A stretch of 35,467 nt of DNA, taken from positions 1-35,467 of the forward strand of contig NZ_VCYH01000016.1 in assembly GCF_030464345.1 (NCBI RefSeq), given 5' to 3'. Position numbers and translations under genes: made by a program. The notes below the pieces were generated by a model. The model had not been told where the DNA came from and searched no databases. It saw only the letters and a list, made by a program, of their open reading frames with translations. Position 1 is the first letter of the stretch. Every line of letters begins with the position of its first letter. Source of the stretch: Methanoculleus frigidifontis (GTDB lineage Archaea; Halobacteriota; Methanomicrobia; Methanomicrobiales; Methanoculleaceae). Shown one piece after another: positions 2,559 to 22,130 of the stretch.

Positions 2559-3334
2559 TTGGAAAGCTTCACCCAGTCCCGGATATTGGTCCAGTACCGG
2601 CTGAAGAACTGGACGAACCCCGGCGACTCCGAGTAGAGCGCCGACGTCTCTTCCCCGGACGAGCCCATCCAGACCAACACTTTTGCACCGTCGACGATGA
2701 AGACGCCTGCGTTCTCCATCGGCGGGTGATTCTCACACTGCTCGTGCTTCATGCAGTGGCGGTGCACGTGGACGGCCACGCCCTCCGGCACCTCTCCCTC
2801 CCAGAAGTCGGTGACGACCTCGACGGCGATTGCGCCCCGGGCCTGCCGGAGAAGCGGGAGGATCGTTTCGGAGAGGAGATTCCAGTTGGCGACCATCCGT
2901 ATCTCCTTCCCGGCGTTCCGGATGAGATCGGTGAGCCGCCCCTGGATATTCTCCTGCCCGTAAATACTCCAGATGAACTCCTGGTCGGCACGGTGTTCCT
3001 CGGCCTTCTCCCGGTAGATCGCGGTGAGCGCCTCGCGGGCCTGGGCCGCATCCTCCTCGATCCGGTGCATGAGCGAATCGATACCGTCGTCGGGGGGAGT
3101 CGCGTTGAACCGCTTCGGGCTCGTGTGTGAGACGCTGACGAGGCTCTTCTGCATCAGCCGGTCGAGGACCGGGTAGACCGACGCGCGGGGCACCCCGGAG
3201 ATCTCGTGGATCTCCGTCGCCGTCGCGCCCGCCACCCGCAGAAGACCGATGTAGACCAGGGCTTCGTACTTGGTTAAACCCAGAGATTTGAGAGATTCGA
3301 TGATATGTACAGGGATCTCGCGTGGCTCGCTCAT
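2552..3334 (-). CDS. TrmB-family transcriptional regulator
   Basis: This 260-residue protein has an N-terminal winged helix of TrmB type: LGLTKYEALVYIGLL near 18-32, then ATATEIHEISGVPRASVYPVLDRL near 38-60. A helical linker (85-118) and a phospholipase-D-like TrmB sensor domain (120-235) follow. TrmB proteins bind palindromic promoters and usually sense sugars or other small ligands. A His/Cys cluster at 189-203 (His189, His191, His193, Cys194, His197, Cys200, His203) could bind a metal; this is inference. The ATG at 3334 lies about 25 bp from a TTTATT-like TATA element near 3358-3364, consistent with a leaderless transcript. It faces the COG1361 gene across a 64-bp divergent promoter, a likely target or shared control point. 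The ligand is unknown. Confidence 0.85.
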   Translation of the reverse strand: MSEPREIPVHIIESLKSLGLTKYEALVYIGLLRVAGATATEIHEISGVPRASVYPVLDRLMQKSLVSVSHTSPKRFNATPPDDGIDSLMHRIEEDAAQAREALTAIYREKAEEHRADQEFIWSIYGQENIQGRLTDLIRNAGKEIRMVANWNLLSETILPLLRQARGAIAVEVVTDFWEGEVPEGVAVHVHRHCMKHEQCENHPPMENAGVFIVDGAKVLVWMGSSGEETSALYSESPGFVQFFSRYWTNIRDWVKLSNQ

Positions 3335-3398
3335 CCCATATGTATATATAATGACGGGAAATAAATGTTGTTACGACAAAAACAACAATGGTGATCTG
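3335..3398. promoter_or_regulatory. Divergent promoter region, TrmB regulator / COG1361 gene
   Basis: The 64-bp gap holds TATATATAAT (about 3343-3352), placed for rightward transcription to the gene at 3399, and AAATAAATG (about 3358-3366), which read leftward gives CATTTATTT suited to the regulator at 3334. The repeat TTGTT/AACAA around 3367-3387 lies downstream of the rightward TATA box and could be an operator. Regulation by the TrmB-type neighbour is inference. Confidence 0.5.
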
Positions 3399-4679
3399 AT
3401 GAGAAGACAGCAACTCCTGGTACTGGCCCTTCTGATCGCGGCGCTCGTCGCGCCGGCGATGGCCGCAGACCAATACCTCTACGGCAGCCCGTCGCTCTCT
3501 GCGGCGATCGCCGGTACGAACGAGTTCTCCCCCGGAGATACCGTCACACTGACGGTAACCCTGACGAACAGCGGCCTGAACACCTACAAGTTCGTCGACC
3601 CGACCGCCGTCGCCCGTGACGACCTCCCGAACACCGCGAAGATGGTCACCGCAGGCCTCGGCACCACCGGCGTTCCGATCACCGTCATGTCCGACCCGCA
3701 GTTCCTCGGCGACATCCCCGGCGGCCGGAGCGCAACCGCGACCTATAACGTCCGGGTTGCCAAAGATGCCGCCCCCGGCACCTACCAGGTGCCGCTCCAG
3801 GTGACCTACACCTACCTCGGCTCGGCGGAGCAGTACAGCGACAGCGTCCGGTACTACTATGACACAAAGACCGAGACGATCCCGGTCGCCATCGTCATCA
3901 AACCCGACCTCCTGATCGACGTCGTCGACGTCACCTCCGAGTATCTCAACGTCGGGACCGAGGGCTACGTCCGCATGACCCTGAAGAATACCGGCTACGA
4001 GACGGCGCACGCCGCGGTCGCCCAGATCGTCCGCAGCGGCACGAGCCCGATCGTCCCCACCGATGCATCCGCCTACCTCGGCACCTTCGCCCCGGGCGAG
4101 ACGGTGGACGTCACCTTCAAAGTCGCGGTCTCCACCGAGGCCGAGACGCAGGCCTACCCCCTGAACGTCCAGGTCACCTATGAGAACAGCGACGGCGACA
4201 CCGTCGCCACCGAGACCACCACCCTCGGCCTGCCGGTCGGCGGCAAGACCGACTTCGCCGTCGCCTCGACGACCGCCTCCCTCACCCCGGGCGCCAAGAG
4301 CGTCCTTGAAGTGGTCTATCGCAACATCGGCGACACCACCGTCTACAACGCACAGGCACGGATCAGCGCCATCGACCCCTTCACCAGCAACGACGACACC
4401 GCCTACCTCGGCGACCTCGCGCCCGGCGACGAGGCGACCGCACGCTTCGAGGTGAACGTCGATGGCGACGCGACCCTCAAGCCCTACGGCCTCGACTCCG
4501 AGATCCGCTACCGCGACGCCCTCGACAACAGCCAGATCTCCGACACCATGAAGGTGCAGGTCGACCTCGTCCCGCGGAGCGATTCACCCTTCACAAACCC
4601 CCTGGTGCTCGCCGTCCTTGCAGTCGCGATCCTGGGTGGAGGGTATTATATACTGGTCTACCGTAAGAAAAACAGATGA
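3399..4679 (+). CDS. COG1361-type exported surface protein with C-terminal membrane anchor
   Basis: The product has 426 residues. It has an N-terminal signal peptide (MRRQQ, then LLVLALLIAALVAPAMA, cleavage near residue 22), tandem beta-sandwich domains of the COG1361/CARDB kind (about 25-155, 165-280, 285-395), and a final transmembrane helix at about 400-420 followed by the basic tail YRKKNR. Phrases such as GDTVTLTVTLTNSG, GTEGYVRMTLKNTG and LAPGDEATARFEV recur, as in S-layer-related proteins of methanogens. It is probably anchored outside the cell, with a structural or adhesive role. I chose ATG 3399 because the signal peptide begins there; the frame is open further upstream but runs through the promoter. 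The stop overlaps the next ATG as ATGA, an unusual pairing with a sugar-phosphate isomerase gene. Confidence 0.8.
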   Translation: MRRQQLLVLALLIAALVAPAMAADQYLYGSPSLSAAIAGTNEFSPGDTVTLTVTLTNSGLNTYKFVDPTAVARDDLPNTAKMVTAGLGTTGVPITVMSDPQFLGDIPGGRSATATYNVRVAKDAAPGTYQVPLQVTYTYLGSAEQYSDSVRYYYDTKTETIPVAIVIKPDLLIDVVDVTSEYLNVGTEGYVRMTLKNTGYETAHAAVAQIVRSGTSPIVPTDASAYLGTFAPGETVDVTFKVAVSTEAETQAYPLNVQVTYENSDGDTVATETTTLGLPVGGKTDFAVASTTASLTPGAKSVLEVVYRNIGDTTVYNAQARISAIDPFTSNDDTAYLGDLAPGDEATARFEVNVDGDATLKPYGLDSEIRYRDALDNSQISDTMKVQVDLVPRSDSPFTNPLVLAVLAVAILGGGYYILVYRKKNR

Positions 4680-5401
4680 ACGGATACTGGAAGGGTACCC
4701 TCCCGGAACCGCAGGTGCGGACAATAGGTGATATGCGGGGCGTGCTCGCCGACCCGGACTGCGCCGCCGCTGCCGATCAACCCCTCTATTTTATGTATCG
4801 CCACCTCGCCCTCTCCGAGGACGATCGCCGGTGGCTTGAGGAGCAGCACCTCAGTTACGACATCACGGTCATCCCGCCGCAGACGCTCTGCGGCGAGTAC
4901 GTCAAGACCAAAGGCCACTATCACATCGAGAACCCGGAGGGTGTCGGATACCCGGAGATCTACGAAGTGCTGGAGGGAGAGGGGCACTACCTCCTCCAGA
5001 ACCACGATGCAAGCGACGTCATCATGATCCGTGCCGTCGCAGGGCAGAAAGTGCTCATCCCCCCGGGCTACGGGCACGTCACCATCAACCCGGGGAAGGA
5101 GGACCTGGTCATGTCAAATCTGGTCTCGACCGAGTTTTCGAGCGACTATGCCCCCTACGTCGAGAAGAGCGGGGCTGCCTACTACGAGATGGAAGGGGGA
5201 GCGCTCGTGAAGAACCCCGCCTACCCCCACGCAAGCCCGGTCCGGCACCTCGCACCCGTCGAGGTCTCCGAGCTCGACCTGACGCGCCGAACGCCCCTCT
5301 ACGATCTGGTCGGCCGCCCGGCCTCGGTGGCGTTCCTCAACCACCCCGAACAGTTCATGCAGATCTTCGCGGGCCTGACCGAGTACCCGGTTCCCCGCTA
5401 A
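4676..5401 (+). CDS. pgi: Glucose-6-phosphate isomerase, archaeal cupin type
   Basis: This 241-residue cytosolic enzyme interconverts glucose-6-phosphate and fructose-6-phosphate, serving gluconeogenesis and glycogen-type storage in methanogens. The cupin fold is shown by TxxxLCGEYVKTKGHYH, with His81 and His83 as metal ligands, Glu94 in PEIYEVLEGEG and His134 in PPGYGHVTINPG. These align with the four metal ligands known for the Pyrococcus enzyme. It also has the family's N-terminal strand block and is somewhat longer than the Pyrococcus protein (about 190 residues) because of a C-terminal extension. Translation is probably coupled to the upstream surface-protein gene through the ATGA overlap. 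The 3' end overlaps the convergent DUF3821 gene by 4 bp. Confidence 0.92.
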   Translation: MNGYWKGTLPEPQVRTIGDMRGVLADPDCAAAADQPLYFMYRHLALSEDDRRWLEEQHLSYDITVIPPQTLCGEYVKTKGHYHIENPEGVGYPEIYEVLEGEGHYLLQNHDASDVIMIRAVAGQKVLIPPGYGHVTINPGKEDLVMSNLVSTEFSSDYAPYVEKSGAAYYEMEGGALVKNPAYPHASPVRHLAPVEVSELDLTRRTPLYDLVGRPASVAFLNHPEQFMQIFAGLTEYPVPR

Positions 5402-6015
5402 ACCATCTCATTTTCCGGCGCCACCGCAAAGACGACGGAGTTTGACGGATACGCCGTCCCGGCGGCGACGACCGTCGCCCGTGCGGCGTAGAATCCGGGC
5501 GAAAGATCTGCAGGGTCGATGACGGCGAGAACCGTCCGGTTCGCCGTCAGTGCGCGCTCCGTCAGGCCAACCCCGCTCGGCCCGGTCAGCGTGATCCGGA
5601 CGGCGCCCCCTGCCGGACGTCCGTGCGTCAGGACGAGGTCGACCGGCCGGCCGGGGGCTATCCGCTCGCCCATCACCGACGCATCCGGCGATCCGTCCAG
5701 AACGACGTCGAGGCGGGGGGAGCCGGTCACGTTCACCCACTGCCGCCCGACGGTATAGACGCCGGTTACCCCGTCGACCGCTCCGGCGGTCAGGTCGAAA
5801 CTGCTCCGGTTCGGAACGGCGATGCTATTGTCGGGGCCGGAGACCCCCGTATGCACCAGGCGGTCGCTGCCAGCGGGCGCACCCGCAAAGAGCGGCGTCA
5901 GGTCCAGGTTCTCCTCACCGACGTAGACCGTATCGCCGCTCGAGACGACCCTGCCGTCGGCGGCCGCCGGAACGGCGATGCAGAGCAGCAGAAGCAGGAG
6001 CAGAGCTCGGTGCAT
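5398..6015 (-). CDS. DUF3821-like exported protein
   Basis: The protein has 205 residues, with a signal peptide (MHRA then a run of seven leucines, cleavage near Ala18-Asp20). The GDTVYVGEENLDLTPLFAG segment near 27-45 marks DUF3821, a domain common in Methanomicrobiales surface proteins. A second beta-rich section (about 120-200) resembles an Ig-like repeat, with GRPVDLVLTHGRPAGGAVRITLTGP. There is no C-terminal anchor, so it is secreted or held by partners. ATG 6015 is preferred to the longer upstream frame because GGTGAG (6019-6024) precedes it and the leader peptide starts there. An AGTATAAAG TATA element (about 6052-6060, read on the minus strand) gives a short leader. Function is unknown beyond the cell envelope. 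Confidence 0.75.
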   Translation of the reverse strand: MHRALLLLLLLCIAVPAAADGRVVSSGDTVYVGEENLDLTPLFAGAPAGSDRLVHTGVSGPDNSIAVPNRSSFDLTAGAVDGVTGVYTVGRQWVNVTGSPRLDVVLDGSPDASVMGERIAPGRPVDLVLTHGRPAGGAVRITLTGPSGVGLTERALTANRTVLAVIDPADLSPGFYAARATVVAAGTAYPSNSVVFAVAPENEMV

Positions 6016-16563: not shown

Positions 16564-16642
16564 TTATTCTTCCCCACCGAAGGGGCTCCGCCCCTTTGAA
16601 AAACCCCGGGGCGACCCGGCGGTCGCCGATGGGCGGTTGAAG
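16564..16642. repeat. Palindromic dispersed repeat, copy 1
   Basis: This unit runs from TTATTCTT through CACCGAAGGGG, a hairpin AAGGGGC-TCC-GCCCCTT, an ACCCCGGGGC block and a GGCGGTCGCCGA block, to GGTTGAAGA. It is the same length (79 bp) as copy 3 at 19922-20000 and clearly homologous throughout. It lies between the divergent C_GCAxxG_C_C and beta-propeller genes. Such GC-rich, non-coding, palindromic units resemble REP/BIME-type elements. Confidence 0.7.
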
Positions 16643-19405: not shown

Positions 19406-19794
19406 TCGGGCTTTCCGCTCTTCGTACGCACTGATGTTGTGGTTCCTGCACGGCGCATACCTCTTGCATGAGGCTCAACGCTGCCGGGCAAAATACCTTT
19501 CATAACCATCTGCCGGAGGGTGCCGCAGGCAGCTCCGGCAGGAGGAGAGGAGAACCCGGGCGACCGTCCTGTCGCCTGCGGACATATGGAGGAACGCCAG
19601 AAAAATCGTTTGGAACGAGAAAACGACGTCCCGGCGGGATCCGGGCGCGCGGCATTTCCAAGCGAAACAAAGGGGTTTTCGCCCTGCGGGTCGCTCTCAG
19701 GCGTCCTTTGGCCTTCCGCAAATTTCTCACGAAGCGTTCGAGGATAAAACGGCTCAGAAGGAGGTATTTTGATCAGAAAAGCCCATATACGCCG
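19406..19794. other. Intergenic stretch with a degenerate hairpin element
   Basis: No convincing gene lies here. At 19510-19541 the arms CTGCCGGAG and CTCCGGCAG form a 9-bp inverted repeat. It is followed by AACCCGGGCGAC and GTCGCC, which resemble the ACCCCGGGGCGAC...GGTCGCC part of the dispersed repeats and may be a diverged copy. The rest is featureless apart from short open frames with random composition. Confidence 0.45.
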
Positions 19795-19850
19795 CAAAAG
19801 GGCTCCGCCCCTTTCAGAGCATCACGGCATCCTGCGGTCGCCGATGAGCG
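19795..19850. repeat. Palindromic dispersed repeat, copy 2 (diverged)
   Basis: It shares AAAGGGCTCCGCCCCTTTC and GCGGTCGCCGATG with copy 1, in the same order and orientation. The middle block is altered (GCATCACGGCATCCT in place of ACCCCGGGGCRACCYG). It lies 127 bp from copy 3, so the two form a local pair. Confidence 0.6.
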
Positions 19851-19891
19851 CTAGGGGGACGGATAGACGACAGGATGGAGAAAGAAAACAG

Positions 19892-19925
19892 TGGACTCGG
19901 CGGGATTTGAACCCGCGGCCTTTAC
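19892..19925 (-). pseudogene. 3'-fragment of a tRNA-Ala-like gene
   Basis: These 34 bases are identical to the 3' end (T arm, variable loop and part of the anticodon stem) of the intact tRNA-Ala gene at 20034-20105, in the same orientation and 142 bp away. The identity stops where hairpin repeat copy 3 begins (19922), and the 5' half of the tRNA is missing. It cannot form a functional tRNA. It may be half of a tandem duplication destroyed by the repeat, or a leftover attachment-site duplication. Confidence 0.75.
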
Positions 19926-20000
19926 TCTTGCGCACCGAAGGGGCTCCGCCCCTTTCGAAACCCCGGGGCAACCTGGCGGTCGCCGACGGTTGTTTGAAGA
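19922..20000. repeat. Palindromic dispersed repeat, copy 3
   Basis: The 79-bp unit runs from TTACTCTT, CACCGAAGGGG, the hairpin AAGGGGC-TCC-GCCCCTT, ACCCCGGGGC and GGCGGTCGCCGA to TTTGAAGA. It matches copy 1 over its full length with scattered substitutions and small compensating indels. Its left end abuts the truncated tRNA gene exactly, so it marks the breakpoint of that gene. Confidence 0.7.
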
Positions 20001-20033
20001 AGTAAGAGAAGCACAAAACGAAAGAAGAAATTA

Positions 20034-20105
20034 TGGACTCGGCGGGATTTGAACCCGCGGCCTTTACGTTGCGAACGTAACGATCTACCCCTGATCTACG
20101 AGCCC
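20034..20105 (-). tRNA. tRNA-Ala (anticodon CGC)
   Basis: The 72-nt gene folds as a standard cloverleaf. The acceptor is GGGCTCG/CGAGTCC with the G3-U70 wobble that marks tRNA-Ala. The D stem is GATC/GATC, the anticodon stem TTACG/CGTAA with loop TTCGCAA (anticodon CGC), the variable loop AGGCC, and the T stem GCGGG/CCCGC with loop TTCAAAT. The discriminator is A and CCA is not encoded. It follows tfb by 12 bp on the same strand. Confidence 0.93.
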
Positions 20106-21467: not shown

Positions 21468-22130
21468 TTAGATTCGATGCAGGAAGCGTTTTATGTCCAG
21501 GGAGAGCGCCTCCCGACACTCCGCCTCCGTCATCCCTGCTCCCAGCGCAACCGCTTTTCGTGCCCCGGCCGTCATCAGATCGGACGGCGCATGTGCGTCC
21601 GAATCAACCGTAACAACGCACCCTGCCTCCCGCGCCATCAGGAGGACGTGCCCGTTCGTCCGGTTATGCCCTCCCCGCGCGGTGATCTCAAGAGCAATCC
21701 CCATCGCCGCCGCGCTCCGCGCATCCTCAAGGCTGATCAGCCCGGGGTGCGCGAGCACGTCGACGTACTCGCAGGTGCAGGCCGCCTGGTTCGTACCCGG
21801 GGCGACCGGCTCGATCGTCGTCTCGCCGTGCACCACGACGATATCGGCTCCCCGCTGTTTTGCCGTCCGGGCGAGCAGCGGGATCTCGGACGGCGGGACG
21901 TGCGTCAGCTCCACGCCGACGAGGACTTCAACCCCGTACTTCCGGGCAGACTCCTGCACCGGCCGGAGCTCGTCGATCAGGCGGGCCGTGTTCGTGCTGT
22001 CCGCATGGTCGGTGATCGCGACCGTCCGGTAACCGAGGACGGCGCACCGGCGGACGAGCTCGATCGGGAGGAGCTCGCCGTCGCTGCAGATCGTGTGCGT
22101 GTGAAGGTCGTACATGCCTGGGGTGCTCAC
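21468..22130 (-). CDS. PHP-domain phosphoesterase (histidinol-phosphatase-like)
   Basis: The 220-residue protein has the PHP metal motifs in order: YDLHTHTICSDGE (7-19), ITDHAD, VELTHVPP, VVVHGETT, LAHPGL and DSDAHAP (near 176-182). PHP enzymes use three metals to hydrolyse phosphoesters; members include histidinol phosphatase and nucleotide- or RNA-acting enzymes, and the substrate here is open. The ATG overlaps the srp19 stop as ATGA (22127-22130), supporting this start over Met6, so it is probably made from the srp19 transcript. Confidence 0.85.
   Translation of the reverse strand: MSTPGMYDLHTHTICSDGELLPIELVRRCAVLGYRTVAITDHADSTNTARLIDELRPVQESARKYGVEVLVGVELTHVPPSEIPLLARTAKQRGADIVVVHGETTIEPVAPGTNQAACTCEYVDVLAHPGLISLEDARSAAAMGIALEITARGGHNRTNGHVLLMAREAGCVVTVDSDAHAPSDLMTAGARKAVALGAGMTEAECREALSLDIKRFLHRI

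What the first reader, a model, noticed from the sequence alone, without database searches (positions are those of the whole stretch)
19892..20105. Truncated tRNA-Ala copy whose breakpoint coincides with a repeat
34 bases identical to the 3' half of the intact tRNA-Ala(CGC) end exactly where repeat copy 3 begins. This may record insertion of the repeat into a duplicated tRNA gene, or a relic attachment site made by an integrative element at the tRNA 3' end.
Basis: partly seen in the sequence, partly recalled or inferred. Interest (0 to 1): 0.6.

Follow-up and report, generated by a model that had tools for sequence, protein, structure and literature searches.

The report
tRNA-anchored hairpin repeat unit
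The broken tRNA copy is one end of a roughly 140-base repeat unit (tRNA end + spacer + two conserved hairpins) that comes and goes as a block beside alanine tRNA genes throughout one order of methane-making archaea; it looks like a miniature insertion at a tRNA attachment site, and it seems not to have been described before.

Summary
In detail: 19892-19925 repeats bases 40-73 of tRNA-Ala(CGC) exactly, beside the hairpin repeat. In relatives the truncated copy and the repeat form one unit: [tRNA 3' part + T-rich spacer + double hairpin]. It lies downstream of tRNA-Ala(CGC), next to the TFB gene, in most genomes of this family and in three other families of Methanomicrobiales, with 0-3 truncated copies. 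In one family it also follows tRNA-Ala(TGC). Truncated copies match the neighbouring tRNA of their own genome. Three filled/empty pairs of relatives differ by exactly one unit. The double hairpin shows strong covariation (13 of 16 pairs with double changes; 0 of 500 shuffles as high), has no Rfam family, and ends in a tail resembling the anticodon loop. A related family has a provirus with an archaeal integrase at this very tRNA, so the site is a real attachment site. Best reading: the copy is the displaced tRNA end (attR-like) of a miniature, gene-less unit gained and lost by recombination at the tRNA. Whether an integrase or ordinary tandem recombination does this is open, as is any RNA function.

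The parts
20034..20105 (-). intact tRNA-Ala(CGC), anchor of the unit
   Evidence: ARAGORN and Rfam tRNA model
19987..20033 (-). T-rich spacer 1; length and sequence vary between species (mean pairwise identity 0.54)
   Evidence: covariance model R1, 74 bits; fold; covariation
19892..19932 (-). truncated tRNA-Ala copy: exact for bases 40-73 (19892-19925), with a further match to bases 34-38 (19928-19932) after a 2-nt difference
19845..19891 (-). spacer 2, not alignable with spacer 1
19787..19844 (-). decayed double hairpin 2 (DH2), outer unit, no tRNA copy after it
   Evidence: model R1, 33 bits
16570..16629 (-). detached double hairpin 3, same strand, 3.4 kb downstream, no tRNA piece next to it
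   Evidence: model R1, 66 bits
20118..21131 (-). TFB (TFIIB) gene, conserved neighbour of this tRNA in all related loci that reach it
   Evidence: Pfam; tblastn across loci

Best explanation
The truncated tRNA is the displaced 3' end of the tRNA gene at the outer border of a discrete unit of about 110-185 bp (142 bp here): tRNA-Ala 3' part, T-rich spacer, conserved double hairpin. Units are gained and lost as whole blocks at the tRNA. SHOWN: unit structure, recurrence, filled and empty sites, copies that match their own genome's tRNA, conserved hairpin pairing, and a provirus with an integrase at the same tRNA in a related family. INFERRED: a unit joins the tRNA by recombination between the tail of the double hairpin, which resembles the anticodon loop (or, in a minority, the T-loop), and that loop in the tRNA gene. 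The incoming unit brings its own tRNA 3' end, so the tRNA stays intact and the old 3' end is pushed outward, as in tRNA-targeted integration. Afterwards recombination between tRNA 3' part copies, or between hairpins, duplicates, swaps and deletes units, and outer units decay. I favour a gene-less mini-element acted on at least originally by a tyrosine integrase supplied from elsewhere, over purely integrase-free duplication, but only modestly.
For: The same unit follows tRNA-Ala(CGC) in most same-family genomes and in families f2, f3 and f5. Filled versus empty: G020 has tRNA-unit-copy-flank where G011 has tRNA-flank; G019 versus G008 and G018 versus G021 differ by one unit; G020/G011 are sisters in the TFB tree (0.94). 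Copies follow their own neighbouring tRNA in 40 copies read, including TGC-type copies next to tRNA-Ala(TGC). The tail base matching anticodon base 34 is T in 10 of 10 TGC arrays and never in CGC arrays. A provirus (Phage_integr_3 integrase, Mtd_N protein) sits between tRNA-Ala(CGC) and a roughly 45-nt copy of its 3' half in G029. Archaeal integrases favour tRNA 3' ends, with the anticodon loop as overlap region for IntSSV1 (PMC8371274), and partial tRNAs from such integration are common (PMC9897764). In a MAG labelled Micrarchaeota the same hairpin core lies between tRNA-Pro and a truncated tRNA-Pro end, with the junction in the T-loop.
Against: No integrase or other gene lies in any unit. 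No larger autonomous element carrying the double hairpin was found, and exact-pattern scans of viral contigs found none. Neighbouring units within one array are often near-identical (G001, G009, G013, G092), as plain tandem duplication would give. The tail differs from the loop at base 33 in both CGC and TGC arrays, so it is not a perfect 7-bp overlap. The TFB tree is weakly supported at several nodes, so gain and loss cannot be told apart for every pair.
Confidence: 0.55

Rival explanations
1. Integrase-free tandem repeat. A double hairpin happened to lie downstream of tRNA-Ala in an ancestor. Short similarity between its tail and the anticodon loop (or T-loop) allowed one duplication by slippage or unequal crossing-over, and homologous recombination between the roughly 30-nt tRNA copies and between hairpins has since added, removed and homogenised units.
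For: Near-identical neighbouring units in G001, G009, G013, G092, G151 and G219. Copies follow their own tRNA, as concerted evolution predicts. In several f5 genomes whole tRNA-Ala(CGC) and tRNA-Ala(TGC) genes alternate with units in one cluster. G007/G080 and G009 share the flank beyond the hairpin but have different spacer types, which fits exchange at the hairpin.
Against: Arrays with unrelated spacers but identical tRNA copies (G000, G018, G019) need the copies to be homogenised without the spacers. The same unit plan at tRNA-Pro in another phylum would need the same accident twice.
Confidence: 0.33
2. Relic of one large integrative element (provirus or island) at tRNA-Ala that shrank to its ends, leaving attL-spacer-hairpin-attR.
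For: A provirus occupies this tRNA in G029. In G024 a short open frame resembling RHH regulators follows the truncated copy. The window's own genome has a 3.1-kb segment with toxin-antitoxin and restriction genes between tRNA-Ala(GGC) and a copy of its 3' part.
Against: The same compact unit recurs across four families with covarying hairpins; independent decay of large elements would not leave the same 57-nt structure. The G029 provirus carries no double hairpin (no model match in G029).
Confidence: 0.07
3. The double hairpin is primarily a structured RNA made from the tRNA transcript (a trailer or separate small RNA). The tandem tRNA pieces are by-products or part of the RNA. (This is about function and can be true together with either history above, so the confidences do not sum to one.)
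For: 13 of 16 pairs with double changes, 0/500 shuffles as high. G-U far outnumbers A-C on the tRNA strand: 64 versus 9 cells, and 34 versus 7 genus-by-pair events. Hairpins are conserved (0.86) where the spacer is not (0.54).
Against: Absent from many related genomes (59 of 232 have it) and decayed in some. The G-U excess is also expected for an element recognised as single-stranded DNA, and the covariance model itself favours G-U. No expression data.
Confidence: 0.25

Closest known systems
Genomic islands and proviruses integrated at tRNA genes by tyrosine recombinases (Islander-type; archaeal SSV/pT26-2-type)
   Same: Intact tRNA at one end, displaced 3' fragment at the other, shared segment running from the anticodon loop to the 3' end, empty sites in relatives
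   Different: The segment between is only about 110 bp, carries no gene, has a conserved double hairpin next to the displaced end, and occurs in tandem series
E. coli tyrT tandem repeats / rtT RNA (recalled from memory; no text found)
   Same: Tandem repeats downstream of a tRNA gene, each starting with the 3' end of that tRNA
   Different: Different tRNA, domain, unit length and sequence; Rfam, which I believe holds rtT, gives no match here; here the hairpins covary and span an order
REP/MITE-type dispersed palindromic repeats
   Same: Short GC-rich double hairpin; in genus g25 (G115-117) and in G147 dispersed in at least 10-24 copies
   Different: In the window's own genome there are only three copies, all within 3.5 kb of one tRNA; in Methanoculleus-type genomes it is confined to tRNA-Ala(CGC)
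Partial tRNA genes misread as tRNAs in archaea (PMC9897764)
   Same: A 3' fragment of a tRNA left by integration
   Different: Those examples bound 9-23 kb elements; this one bounds 108 bp

Membership tests
tRNA-integrated mobile element | intact tRNA plus displaced 3' fragment in direct orientation bounding the insert | tested here: met
tRNA-integrated mobile element | empty site in a close relative | tested here: met
   G020/G011, G019/G008, G018/G021
tRNA-integrated mobile element | integrase gene inside the insert | tested here: not met
   the insert is 108 bp with no gene; a non-autonomous member is the most that can be claimed
tRNA-integrated mobile element | excised circle or integrase-dependent recombination | not testable with these tools
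   needs the bench
REP/MITE dispersed repeat | many copies spread over the genome | tested here: not met
   own genome: 3 real matches, all near the tRNA; met only in g25 and G147
REP/MITE dispersed repeat | transposase mobilising it, target-site rule | not tested
   no boundaries of dispersed copies were mapped; searches show only that in g25 the core lies inside larger repeats of about 300 bp
structured RNA family | conserved base pairing with compensatory changes | tested here: met
structured RNA family | match to a described Rfam family | tested here: not met
   only the tRNA itself above gathering score
structured RNA family | transcription | not testable with these tools
   no expression data
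split (trans-spliced) tRNA 3' half | half starting at the splice position, with no intact gene for that tRNA | tested here: not met
   intact tRNA-Ala(CGC) present; copy starts at base 34-40 and lacks the 5' anticodon strand
tmRNA | tmRNA score above gathering and paired acceptor ends | tested here: not met
   20 bits against a gathering score of 47 at 19889-19964

The most novel reading that the evidence does not exclude
A new class of gene-less archaeal mini-elements: a double hairpin, with a tail imitating a tRNA anticodon loop or T-loop, docks at tRNA 3' ends, carries a replacement tRNA end, builds integron-like tandem arrays, and is read as folded single-stranded DNA or as RNA. It is not limited to tRNA-Ala or Methanomicrobiales: the same core lies beside tRNA-Pro in a MAG labelled Micrarchaeota, near a tRNA end in a DPANN MAG, and inside the anticodon-loop intron region of a tRNA-Arg in a Methanocellales MAG.
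Probability: 0.27. Interest if true: 0.82.

Novelty: new variant of a known kind. Interest (0 to 1): 0.58.

Why it matters
Partial tRNA genes are usually read as scars of big integrated elements. Here the scar bounds a tiny, conserved, hairpin-bearing unit that has come and gone beside the same tRNA across an order. If it is a mini-element, it shows how little DNA can use a tRNA attachment site and how arrays grow there. If it is an RNA, it is an undescribed structured trailer of tRNA-Ala. In one family the clusters also hold alternating tRNA-Ala(CGC) and tRNA-Ala(TGC) genes, so such recombination may help new isoacceptors arise. It also warns that partial tRNA copies in these genomes are not evidence of islands.

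Tried and rejected
Dispersed REP family in this genome: rejected, 3 copies only. tmRNA: 20 bits, below gathering. Split tRNA: rejected (intact gene present). 'tRNA-Ser(GGA)' predicted by ARAGORN in G150 (L080 384-459): treated as a false call built from hairpin 2 plus a truncated tRNA-Ala. Insertion of the repeat into a duplicated tRNA: rejected, because the hairpin follows the intact tRNA even where no copy exists. Selection on the truncated copies: not supported, since outer copies decay in G015, G017, G022 and G092. Viral source: no exact match in viral contigs (exact patterns only). MFE folds: individual z-scores are modest (-0.05 to -1.7), so the structural claim rests on covariation. The 'Bacteroidales' hit L188 looks like Methanoculleus contamination. 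Literature searches for this repeat, for rtT/tyrT and for Methanoculleus tRNA islands found nothing on it. The class-level search covered the same 232 genomes as the order-level one. An automatic short-copy finder gave false positives for G012 and G016; those genomes were read by eye as having no truncated copy.

Full report
OBSERVATION. The window holds an intact tRNA-Ala(CGC) at 20034-20105 on the minus strand. A 34-base copy of its 3' part lies at 19892-19925, identical letter for letter. In tRNA numbering the copy is bases 40-73, from the 3' side of the anticodon stem to the discriminator base. After a 2-nt difference five more bases, CGCAA (anticodon plus A37 A38), match as well. The repeat called copy 3 is directly adjacent. 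Chance is excluded.

THE REPEAT IS A TRNA-LINKED DOUBLE HAIRPIN. I built a covariance model (R1, 57 positions, 16 pairs) from the repeat cores. In this genome it finds three real copies: 19928-19986, a decayed one at 19787-19844, and a detached one at 16570-16629. In 40 relatives nearly all hits lie right downstream of tRNA-Ala(CGC). In 232 genomes of the order 59 have it, in 16 of 40 genera. Records matched by name are Methanoculleus, Methanogenium and other Methanomicrobiales. The tRNA is always next to the TFB gene wherever the locus reaches that far.

THE UNIT. Read from the tRNA, the arrays are: tRNA, T-rich spacer, hairpin 1 (GGCGACC..GGTCGCC), GGGGTTT, hairpin 2 (CGAAAGGGGC..GCCCCTTCG, with a bulged A), tail, truncated tRNA 3' part, and then often another spacer and double hairpin. 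Of 29 same-family loci read by eye and script, nine have the double hairpin with no truncated copy, ten have one copy, three have two, two have a decayed copy, three have no double hairpin at all, and two are cut by contig ends (tally). In family f5 the same unit also follows tRNA-Ala(TGC), and several genomes have CGC and TGC genes in one cluster with units between.

THE COPY BELONGS TO ITS OWN TRNA. In 40 truncated copies bases 49-60 are 95-100% and bases 61-73 mostly 87-97% identical to the intact tRNA just upstream, with one position at 80%. This holds although the tRNA differs between species and between the CGC and TGC genes. In TGC arrays the tail reads TCTGCAA or a variant, in CGC arrays TCCGCAA or other forms. 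The base matching anticodon base 34 is T in 10 of 10 TGC arrays and in no CGC array. So the homology reaches into the anticodon loop, and the junction between hairpin and tRNA copy lies there. A minority have the junction in the T-loop, with only the last 12 or so bases copied (G224, G209).

FILLED AND EMPTY SITES. G020 has tRNA, spacer, hairpins, truncated copy, flank. Its sister G011 (0.94 in the TFB tree) has tRNA followed directly by that flank. G019 versus G008, and G018 versus G021, each differ by exactly one unit: the outer spacer and hairpin of the longer array match the only spacer and hairpin of the shorter. Arrays with unrelated spacers (G000, G018, G019) and arrays with identical spacers (G009, G013, G092) both occur. 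Outer copies decay in G015, G017, G022 and G092. These facts show gain or loss of whole blocks and ageing outward from the tRNA. They do not say which enzyme does it.

THE TRNA IS A REAL ATTACHMENT SITE. In G029, of family f6, in which no double hairpin was found, tRNA-Ala(CGC) is followed by about 16 kb ending in a roughly 45-nt copy of the tRNA's 3' half. The segment carries an archaeal phage integrase (PF16795) and a major-tropism-determinant domain protein. Integration from the anticodon loop to the tRNA 3' end is typical of archaeal integrases (PMC8371274), and partial tRNAs are their usual scar (PMC9897764). In the window's own genome tRNA-Ala(GGC) has a similar 3' copy 3.1 kb away.

HAIRPINS ARE CONSERVED AS PAIRS. 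In 132 distinct sequences 96.9% of pair cells are standard; 13 of 16 pairs show changes on both sides (mean 6.1 in shuffles) and 71 cells do (9.9), with no shuffle of 500 reaching either. The alignment was fitted to the model and the sequences are related, so the shuffle count is not a probability; the sliding controls are also far lower. Among tRNA-linked copies G-U cells number 64 against 9 A-C, or 34 against 7 as genus-by-pair events. That points to the tRNA-sense strand acting single-stranded, as RNA or as DNA. The model itself prefers G-U, so this is supportive only. Across 22 same-family loci the hairpins are 0.86 identical on average against 0.54 for the spacer.

BEYOND THE ORDER. An exact pattern of the hairpin 2 core, scanned in one genome per species, hit a few other archaeal MAGs. 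In one labelled Micrarchaeota: tRNA-Pro(CGG), spacer, a different hairpin 1, the same hairpin 2, then a truncated tRNA-Pro end with the junction in the T-loop. In a DPANN MAG: a tRNA 3' end, a hairpin, then hairpin 2. In a Methanocellales MAG the core lies, reversed, in what reads as the anticodon-loop intron region of a tRNA-Arg(CCT) gene (my reading of the sequence). It is rare there: 1 of 87 genomes in the Micrarchaeota group searched, and 1 genome outside this order in a sample of 393 of the phylum. MAG labels are unchecked. If these hold, the hairpin 2 core is a portable, tRNA-seeking module and not a peculiarity of one tRNA.

JUDGEMENT. Structure, recurrence, filled and empty sites and conserved pairing are shown. 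The mechanism is inferred. I favour a gene-less mini-element using the tRNA attachment site (0.55) over integrase-free tandem recombination (0.33). A function of the double hairpin as RNA is compatible with either.

LIMITS. Genome searches scored at most 24 candidates per genome at order level, so copy numbers in G115-117 and G147 are lower bounds. One array (G040) contains Ns. Identities are ungapped. No expression or recombination data exist here.

Noticed in passing
window 21468-22130 (-): PHP-domain protein matching RNase P subunit p30, one gene beyond TFB: a tRNA-processing gene near the tRNA
   Followed up: no
L133 (G000:C10:17000-25000), 2680-5867: tRNA-Ala(GGC) with a copy of its 3' part 3.1 kb downstream bounding a PemK/MazF toxin, a winged-helix protein, a HicB-like antitoxin and a TdeIII restriction endonuclease; no integrase seen. 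About 100 nt after both tRNA copies are alike, including a small RHH-like open frame
   Followed up: partly
L113 (G029:C11:22000-41900): Provirus-like 16-kb element at tRNA-Ala(CGC) with a Phage_integr_3 integrase and a Mtd_N protein
   Followed up: partly
L081, L082, L083, L088 (family f5): tRNA-Ala(TGC) resembles a tandem duplicate of tRNA-Ala(CGC), unlike the TGC gene of the window's genome (L134): possible isoacceptor change within these arrays
   Followed up: no
L073-L077, L114-L126 (genus g25): The hairpin core is embedded in abundant dispersed repeats of about 300 bp with inverted arms (MITE-like); tens of copies per genome
   Followed up: partly
L176 near 5620-5850: Hairpin 2 core, reversed, inside what reads as an intron in the anticodon loop of a tRNA-Arg(CCT) in a Methanocellales MAG
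   Followed up: no
L135 (G000:C1:295000-297000), near 833 and 1040: Degenerate tRNA-Leu-like sequence 207 nt after an intact tRNA-Leu(CAG)
   Followed up: no
L172 19449-19664 (G024): Short open frame resembling RHH regulators directly after the truncated tRNA copy in place of a second double hairpin, possibly the edge of another integrated element
   Followed up: partly
L188: Contig filed as a Bacteroidales MAG carries the Methanoculleus-type tRNA-Ala array: probably a contaminated bin
   Followed up: no
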